From Candidatus Woesearchaeota archaeon (GTDB lineage: Archaea > Nanobdellota > Nanobdellia > Woesearchaeales > GW2011-AR4): 64,000 nucleotides of DNA. The DNA is taken from NCBI GenBank assembly GCA_016181305.1, contig JACOZN010000002.1, positions 1-64,000 of the forward strand. Direction: 5' to 3'. A program made the position numbers and the translations under genes. Every line of letters begins with the position of its first letter. Position 1 is the stretch's first letter. The notes beneath the pieces were generated by a model that saw only the letters and a program-made list of their open reading frames with translations, made no database searches and was not told the origin of the DNA. Positions 6,335-6,621 of the stretch are shown here, piece by piece.

Positions 6335-6415
6335 CTCAAAAATAGCTTGGATTTAATCTATTTAAAGTTTGTGATTCGACAAACATTTATAAAGCAAAAA
6401 TAAATACAAAGCAAT

Positions 6416-6621
6416 GCCGGGATCGCGTAACCTGGTAGATGGCGAGGTTCGCAAAACCGAGCCTCACACCGCAGGAAATCGCGCAAGCCTGGAATGAGCC
6501 GTAAAGCTTGTTTCCGAAAGGATATCTGGGTTCAAAATCGTGATGGCATTTCAAGCACGAGCTTCGTTGCCTGACTTAACAACGGCAATGAGCCGTCATG
6601 AGGAATCTCCCAGTCCCGGCG
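6416..6621 (+). tRNA. tRNA-Ser(GGA) with introns in D-loop and T-loop and an insertion in the anticodon loop
   Basis: Acceptor GCCGGGA(6416-6422)/TCCCGGC(6614-6620)+G73; D-stem GCG(6425-6427)/CGC(6480-6482); anticodon stem CAAGC(6484-6488)/GCTTG(6506-6510) with loop CTGGAA+10 nt+A; variable arm TCC-GAAA-GGA; T-stem CTGGG(6526-6530)/CCCAG(6609-6613). Intron spans about 6438-6477 and about 6537-6607. Confidence 0.75.

What the first reader, a model, noticed from the sequence alone, without database searches (positions are those of the whole stretch)
6416..6621. tRNA-Ser(GGA) interrupted in the D-loop, anticodon loop and T-loop
The acceptor, D, anticodon and T stems all form, but only if about 40 nt are removed from the D-loop, about 10 nt from the anticodon loop and about 71 nt from the T-loop. 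The D-loop insert contains an 8-bp hairpin (GAGGTTCG-CAAAAC-CGAGCCTC). The T-loop insert is closed by TGATGGC/GCCGTCA, consistent with a bulge-helix-bulge. The decamer AATGAGCCGT occurs both in the anticodon-loop insertion (6493-6502) and in the T-loop insert (6587-6596), and GATGGC occurs in both the D-loop and T-loop inserts, so the introns may share ancestry. Multi-intron tRNAs are established in some Thermoproteales; three interruptions including the T-loop would be unusual here.
Basis: partly seen in the sequence, partly recalled or inferred. Interest (0 to 1): 0.8.

Follow-up and report, generated by a model that had tools for sequence, protein, structure and literature searches.

The report
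tRNA gene intron matching ribosomal RNA
A serine tRNA gene of an uncultured Woesearchaeota archaeon is split by three introns, and the third carries a stretch of 18 letters, kept almost unchanged in 16 related genomes, that is the exact mirror partner of a piece of the cell's ribosomal RNA, so the discarded intron may have a second job at the ribosome.

Summary
Window 6416-6621 is a tRNA-Ser(GGA) gene interrupted in the D-loop (6437-6477, 41 nt), anticodon loop (6495-6504, 10 nt, canonical 37/38) and T-loop (6537-6607, 71 nt, position 59/60). Removing the three inserts gives a perfect class II cloverleaf that ARAGORN calls tRNA-Ser(gga). Relatives settle the inserts as introns: one same-genus genome lacks the D and anticodon inserts, outgroups lack the T insert, and the T-loop bulge-helix-bulge is kept with different, self-complementary stem sequences. 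At least nine same-genus genomes share the three-intron layout, so the gene is not exceptional in its clade.

The new point lies inside the T-loop intron. TCGTTGCCTGACTTAACA (6564-6581) is the exact antisense of 16S rRNA TGTTAAGTCAGGCAACGA (helix 37 plus the 3' side of helix 35). Sixteen genomes of the family carry it once each, always at this place, pairing over 18-22 nt, while the rest of the intron diverges; shuffles never come close. It lacks box C/D or H/ACA architecture. Most likely the excised intron pairs with 16S rRNA in trans, perhaps as an assembly chaperone. That function is inferred, not shown.

The parts
6386..6393 (+). TATA-like box A (TTTATAAA), putative promoter of the tRNA gene
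   Evidence: Read; the same ACATTTATAAA stretch lies upstream of the gene in many relatives. Expression not tested.
6416..6436 (+). Exon 1: acceptor 5' strand, D-stem 5' strand, D-loop to G19/U20
   Evidence: Cloverleaf of the spliced sequence; intron-less orthologue G001
6437..6477 (+). D-loop intron, 41 nt (boundary may slide 1 nt). Central helix CCTG/CAGG kept in most relatives; 8-bp internal hairpin
   Evidence: Absent in G001, G003, G013; present with different hairpins in G005, G011, G014, G015, G016, G017, G018
6478..6494 (+). Exon 2: D-stem 3' strand, anticodon stem 5' strand, CTGGAA with anticodon GGA at 6491-6493
6495..6504 (+). Anticodon-loop intron, 10 nt, canonical position 37/38, minimal bulge-helix-loop
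   Evidence: Absent in G001, G009, G019; other lengths in relatives. Other tRNAs of this genome have 11-nt anticodon-loop introns
6505..6536 (+). Exon 3: anticodon stem 3' strand, class II variable arm, T-stem 5' strand, TTCAAA
6537..6607 (+). T-loop intron at position 59/60, 71 nt, BHB with T-stem as outer helix, TTC(A)/(G)GAA central helix and 10-bp inner stem
   Evidence: Structure, stems compared; outgroups G027 and G031 have uninterrupted TTCAAAT
6564..6581 (+). TCGTTGCCTGACTTAACA, exact antisense of 16S rRNA TGTTAAGTCAGGCAACGA
6608..6621 (+). Exon 4: T60, T-stem 3' strand, acceptor 3' strand, discriminator G73

Best explanation
This is a functional tRNA-Ser(GGA) gene whose transcript needs three splicing events (D-loop, 37/38, 59/60) to give the mature tRNA. 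The 71-nt intron released from the T-loop is not just spacer: it holds an antisense block of 18 nt (18-22 in relatives) to 16S rRNA helix 37 and the 3' strand of helix 35. In the free intron the 3' half of the block (UGACUUAACA) is open and the 5' half (GUUGCC) is held in a stem, so it can start pairing through the open half and then invade. The most likely role is a trans-acting RNA that pairs with pre-16S rRNA during head-domain assembly, as a folding chaperone. Shown here: the gene architecture, the three introns (by comparison and structure), and the conserved complementarity. Inferred: that the excised intron persists (perhaps as a circle), that it pairs with 16S rRNA in the cell, and what that pairing does.
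For: Spliced product is a perfect tRNA-Ser(gga). D and AC inserts absent and T insert present in G001; T insert absent in G027/G031. BHB kept with many different but self-complementary inner stems. EndA present (best PDB match the N. equitans catalytic subunit) and RtcB ligase present. Anti-16S block: 353 genomes of the order searched with GTTGCCTGRCTTARCAH, a pattern that excludes the 16S gene itself: 17 hits, 16 of them in Ser(GGA) T-loop introns of one family, one per genome, the 17th in what looks like a protein gene of another family. Complementarity score 21-26 against shuffle maximum 13. In G016 and G020 intron and 16S are seen in the same assembly. All three kinds of change within the paired region (C to T, and A to G at two places) keep G-U pairing. 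The 3' half is among the most open windows of the intron, mean unpaired probability 0.74 against 0.41 overall. Net predicted hybridisation -8 to -21 kcal/mol; about 0 to -2 for three introns without the block.
Against: No RNA data. The block is lost or decayed in same-position introns of other family members (G019, G136, G144, G145 and others), so it is not essential across the family. 16S is invariant at this site in the four family members with a 16S read here, so no compensatory change on the 16S side could be tested. The window's own MAG lacks 16S. In a single genome the match is only E about 0.02 against the whole genome; the case rests on position and conservation. Conservation may come from one inherited origin, so the 16 genomes are not independent.
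Confidence: 0.62

Rival explanations
1. Three ordinary BHB introns; the 16S complement is a conserved motif kept for the intron's own folding or for protein binding, and its match to 16S has no function.
For: Part of the block (TGCC) pairs inside the intron in most models, and in G019, which lost the block, the inner stem is kept as AGACA/TGTCT in place of AGGCA/TGCCT, so stem pairing itself seems to be under selection.
Against: An 18-22 nt match to one 16S site is far outside shuffles (maximum score 13 against 21-26). The open 3' half, which pairs with little in the intron, is just as well kept. The stem partner of TGCC differs between subgroups (5' AGGCA, or 3' GGCAATG in the window) while TGCC stays.
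Confidence: 0.15
2. The intron guides a chemical modification of 16S rRNA (2'-O-methylation or pseudouridylation) in an unrecognised box C/D or H/ACA format.
For: The tRNA-Trp intron of archaea is a box C/D guide (PMC4090602). CTGA lies inside the block in 15 of 16 introns, and the block ends in ACA.
Against: No box C within one mismatch in 12 of 16 introns; the block's CTGA sits 22-38 nt from the 3' end and is itself inside the complementary stretch; it is lost in G005. ACA is inside the duplex. No Rfam match.
Confidence: 0.1
3. The block is a DNA-level relic or decoy of a 16S homing site: rDNA introns of Crenarchaeota and Aigarchaeota insert at position 1093, inside the matched stretch (PMC4496867).
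For: The match straddles a known rDNA intron site and its length is that of a homing-endonuclease site. tRNA introns and 16S in these genomes share a dispersed hairpin repeat.
Against: The four family 16S genes read here have no insert at this site. The block is antisense in a transcribed, probably excised RNA. Observed changes keep G-U pairs, which matters only for RNA, although three kinds of change are weak evidence.
Confidence: 0.08
4. The locus is a pseudogene or untranscribed relic and another Ser(GGA) gene serves the cell.
For: The assembly is 78% complete, so another copy could be missing.
Against: No second copy in 1.07 Mb; every exon stem is intact; orthologues in at least 15 relatives keep the same layout of exons; the upstream TATA-like box is kept.
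Confidence: 0.03

Closest known systems
Archaeal tRNA-Trp intron with nested box C/D sRNA (Haloferax, Pyrococcus sR50)
   Same: A tRNA intron that carries a conserved RNA-directed element and acts in or after excision; described as the one such archaeal example in PMC4090602.
   Different: Target here is 16S rRNA, not the tRNA itself; one long uninterrupted antisense block, no C/D box layout; T-loop intron at 59/60, not anticodon-loop.
Multi-intron tRNAs of Thermoproteales (Pyrobaculum, Thermofilum)
   Same: Up to three BHB introns, many at non-canonical positions, in one tRNA gene (PMC3218864).
   Different: DPANN lineage; no rRNA-antisense intron is reported there in the papers read.
Archaeal box C/D sRNAs acting as rRNA chaperones
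   Same: Small RNA, often circular, pairing with rRNA and proposed to help assembly (PMC7994747).
   Different: No C/D boxes and no bipartite guide; single 18-22 nt duplex.
Yeast free introns of tRNAs (fitRNAs), from memory
   Same: Excised tRNA introns acting by sequence complementarity.
   Different: Those target mRNAs in a eukaryote; here the partner is 16S rRNA.
Permuted tRNAs joined at 59/60 (Thermofilum, Cyanidioschyzon)
   Same: Same T-loop break point 59/60 (PMC3218864).
   Different: Exons here are in normal order.

Membership tests
Archaeal BHB tRNA introns | Bulge-helix-bulge or relaxed form at each exon-intron border | tested here: met
   T-loop: near-canonical hBHBh' (central helix 3 bp plus one mismatch in the window, 4 bp in most relatives). 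D-loop: CCTG/CAGG central helix with enlarged 5' bulge. AC loop: relaxed bulge-helix-loop (both read).
Archaeal BHB tRNA introns | Removal restores a normal tRNA | tested here: met
   ARAGORN tRNA-Ser(gga), all stems paired
Archaeal BHB tRNA introns | Intron-minus orthologues exist | tested here: met
   G001 (no D, no AC), G027 and G031 (no T)
Archaeal BHB tRNA introns | EndA and RtcB in the genome | tested here: met
   subunit type of EndA and broad specificity not settled
Archaeal BHB tRNA introns | Excision in the cell | not testable with these tools
   No RNA data
Box C/D sRNA (as in the tRNA-Trp intron) | Box C RUGAUGA near the 5' end and box D CUGA near the 3' end | tested here: not met
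Box C/D sRNA (as in the tRNA-Trp intron) | Guide directly upstream of D or D', box itself not in the duplex | tested here: not met
   CTGA lies inside the 16S-complementary block
H/ACA sRNA | Two guide strands flanking a stem and ACA 3' of the closing stem | tested here: not met
   Single contiguous antisense; ACA within the duplex and 5' of the closing strand; inspection of models, no dedicated H/ACA program run
RNA acting by antisense pairing to rRNA | Conserved complementarity well beyond chance | tested here: met
RNA acting by antisense pairing to rRNA | Compensatory change on both partners | tested here: inconclusive
   16S invariant at the site in G016, G019, G020, G022; only intron-side changes that keep G-U pairs seen
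RNA acting by antisense pairing to rRNA | Physical pairing in the cell | not testable with these tools
   Needs crosslinking data

The most novel reading that the evidence does not exclude
A new class of tRNA-intron-derived, box-less antisense RNA that pairs with 16S rRNA helix 37 in a family of Woesearchaeota and links tRNA splicing to small-subunit assembly.
Probability: 0.5. Interest if true: 0.85.

Novelty: new variant of a known kind. Interest (0 to 1): 0.72.

Why it matters
Archaeal tRNA introns are mostly viewed as inert; a 2014 review names the tRNA-Trp box C/D intron as the unique archaeal case of an intron encoding a functional unit. A second, structurally different case aimed at the ribosome would give a reason why some introns persist in very small genomes, would suggest a route by which tRNA splicing and ribosome assembly can be coupled, and gives a sharp, testable prediction (an intron-16S duplex at one site).

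Tried and rejected
Shared ancestry of the inserts from the AATGAGCCGT and GATGGC repeats: the decamer is absent from relatives' anticodon-loop introns, and GATGGC in the D intron resembles the 5' end of relatives' D introns (AATGGC), so it need not be a copy of the T intron. Coevolution test with G019: I expected its diverged intron (CATTGTCTTACACATCTAACA) to match a changed 16S; its 16S has the standard sequence, so the block is simply lost there. Complement to 23S or elsewhere in 16S for block-less introns: nothing clearly above shuffles. Other rRNA-antisense tRNA introns in this genome: none seen; the 41-nt and 16-nt tRNA-Thr/His hits are a sense-strand dispersed repeat. G311 hit: in what looks like a protein gene, judged chance. 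Wider distribution: no real hit outside the family in 353 genomes of the order or 237 sampled from the phylum; a variant guide fitting another 16S would be missed if it differed beyond the pattern. Literature: no paper found on tRNA introns antisense to rRNA in the open-access library; subscription journals are mostly missing.

Full report
What is there. The window belongs to contig C2 of a 1.07-Mb, 22-contig, 78%-complete assembly of a Woesearchaeota archaeon; the EF-1A relatives in named genomes are Woesearchaeota at up to 99% identity. At 6416-6621 lies a tRNA-Ser(GGA) gene with three inserts. ARAGORN and Rfam do not see it unspliced in the window. With the inserts removed the 84-nt product GCCGGGATCGCGTAACCTGGTATCGCGCAAGCCTGGAAAGCTTGTTTCCGAAAGGATATCTGGGTTCAAATCCCAGTCCCGGCG is called tRNA-Ser(gga) by ARAGORN with every stem paired, an extra arm of the serine type and discriminator G.

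The inserts are introns. A search of 39 related genomes with the locus brought orthologues. G001, same genus, has GCATAACCTGGTATTGCGC and CAGGC-CTGGAAA-GCCTG, with no D or anticodon insert, but has the T insert. G003 and G013 lack only the D insert; G009 and G019 lack only the anticodon insert of the three, and both also carry an extra insert beside the acceptor stem. G027 and G031, other families of the same order, have an uninterrupted TTCAAAT T-loop. These fix the junctions. G000, G002, G005, G011, G014, G015, G016, G017 and G018 all have the D + anticodon + T layout. The T intron makes a bulge-helix-bulge: T-stem CTGGG/CCCAG outside, TTCA/TGAA in most relatives (TTC/GAA plus one mismatch in the window) as central helix, and an inner stem whose sequence differs between genomes yet pairs (weakest in G018, 3 bp before an interruption). 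The D intron uses CCTG/CAGG as central helix in most relatives, for instance CCTG-GTA-CATTGC-CCA-GCAATG-CAGG-AAA in G014; the window's version has an enlarged 5' bulge before the 8-bp hairpin. The 10-nt anticodon intron is near the lower size limit, but 11-nt anticodon introns occur in two tRNA genes of the same genome. EndA (196 aa, best PDB hit N. equitans catalytic subunit) and RtcB are present. Which EndA subunit class this is, and whether a second subunit exists in the missing fifth of the genome, was not settled.

The unexpected part. Across the T introns one block stands out: GTTGCCTGACTTAACA. The 16S rRNA of family members G016, G019, G020 and G022 reads CCTGTTAAGTCAGGCAACGAGCGAGACC, so the block is its antisense. 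By E. coli numbering (from the 1099F primer position, my knowledge) the duplex covers about 1087-1107: nearly all of helix 37 and the 3' strand of helix 35 in the head domain. In the window the exact match is 18 nt (6564-6581); in relatives 18-22 nt counting G-U pairs. A scan of 353 genomes of the order with GTTGCCTGRCTTARCAH, whose last letter excludes the 16S gene, gave 17 hits: 16 in Ser(GGA) T introns of this one family, one per genome, and one elsewhere in an unrelated family. The scores, 21-26, compare with a maximum of 13 in 40 shuffled introns. A second pattern that allowed two free positions in the helix, and a phylum-wide sample, found no convincing case outside the family.

Why RNA pairing is the favoured reading. 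The match is antisense in the transcribed strand. Within the paired stretch three kinds of change are seen, C to T in eight genomes and A to G in G005 and in G015, all keeping G-U pairs; where the C to T change occurs the pairing extends at least two more base pairs 5'. By my count ten of 60 possible single changes would keep pairing, so three of three is suggestive, but transition bias and shared descent weaken it. In folded introns GUUGCC is mostly paired (mean unpaired 0.23) while UGACUUAACA is open (0.74, overall 0.41), among the most open tenth of windows on average: a natural toehold. Predicted net gain on pairing with the 16S segment is -8 to -21 kcal/mol, and 0 to -2 for three introns without the block.

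Limits. Sixteen genomes that may share one origin are not sixteen independent tests. Same-position introns in G019, G136, G144 and G145 have lost or never had the block, and several other family members have T introns with unrelated cores, so the function, if any, is dispensable over evolutionary time. The 16S side does not vary in the family, so two-sided covariation is untested. The window's own assembly lacks rRNA genes. Against a whole genome a lone 18-nt hit has E of about 0.02; it is the location and conservation that carry weight. Nothing here shows expression, splicing or pairing.

Comparison with the known. Up to three introns per tRNA are known in Pyrobaculum and Thermofilum (PMC3218864). 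Archaeal introns with a function: the tRNA-Trp intron holding a box C/D RNA, called unique in PMC4090602. The present intron fails the box C/D test, has no Rfam match and does not fit H/ACA geometry. It may work like C/D RNAs proposed as 16S chaperones (PMC7994747), without being one. The site also coincides with a 16S intron insertion point, 1093, in Crenarchaeota and Aigarchaeota (PMC4496867); a homing-site relic is kept as a rival, though the family's 16S genes read here are uninterrupted at this site.

Verdict. Three-intron tRNA-Ser(GGA): confidence about 0.96, ordinary for its clade. Conserved 16S complementarity in the T intron: about 0.95 as an observation beyond chance. RNA-level function through that complementarity: about 0.6. 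Assembly chaperone as the specific role: about 0.4.

Noticed in passing
G000 C16:34594-34634 (L023, L004), C19:17615-17630, C5:2286-2305; L191: A dispersed hairpin repeat of about 40 nt, AACCTTTTTGCGTTCGCAAAAAGCTTGACCAAAAA, sits in the tRNA-Thr(CGT) and tRNA-His introns and elsewhere, and is 41-nt identical to a stretch of the 16S gene of G016. It may be a small mobile element shared by tRNA and rRNA introns.
   Followed up: partly
L223 (G019), L222 (G009), L241 (G141), L242 (G144), L244 (G137): These Ser(GGA) genes have a further short insert right after the 5' acceptor strand (GCCGGGATAATTTTTCCCGAACGCATAATC in G019) that can pair with it, so introns at yet other positions occur in the family.
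   Followed up: no
L234 (G136), L242 (G144): Block-less Ser(GGA) T introns of two genera share a different core, TTTGTTGCTTACCAAAACAATC, with no rRNA match; its partner, if any, is unknown.
   Followed up: partly
L094, L238 (G023): The variable arm of tRNA-Ser(GGA) in G023 seems to hold a further hairpin insert (GTGAGCGAGTTCGC...GAGCTCACTCGC).
   Followed up: no
G000 C1:23155-24485 (L274, L275): RtcB: the first 50 profile positions lie in another frame with stops, so a frameshift or an assembly error at the N-terminus.
   Followed up: no
   Followed up: no
L191 (16S positions 191-231): G016 16S carries a 41-nt palindromic insert, AAATGCGAGTGAGCTCGTTGCGAACTCGCTCACAAATCACT.
   Followed up: no
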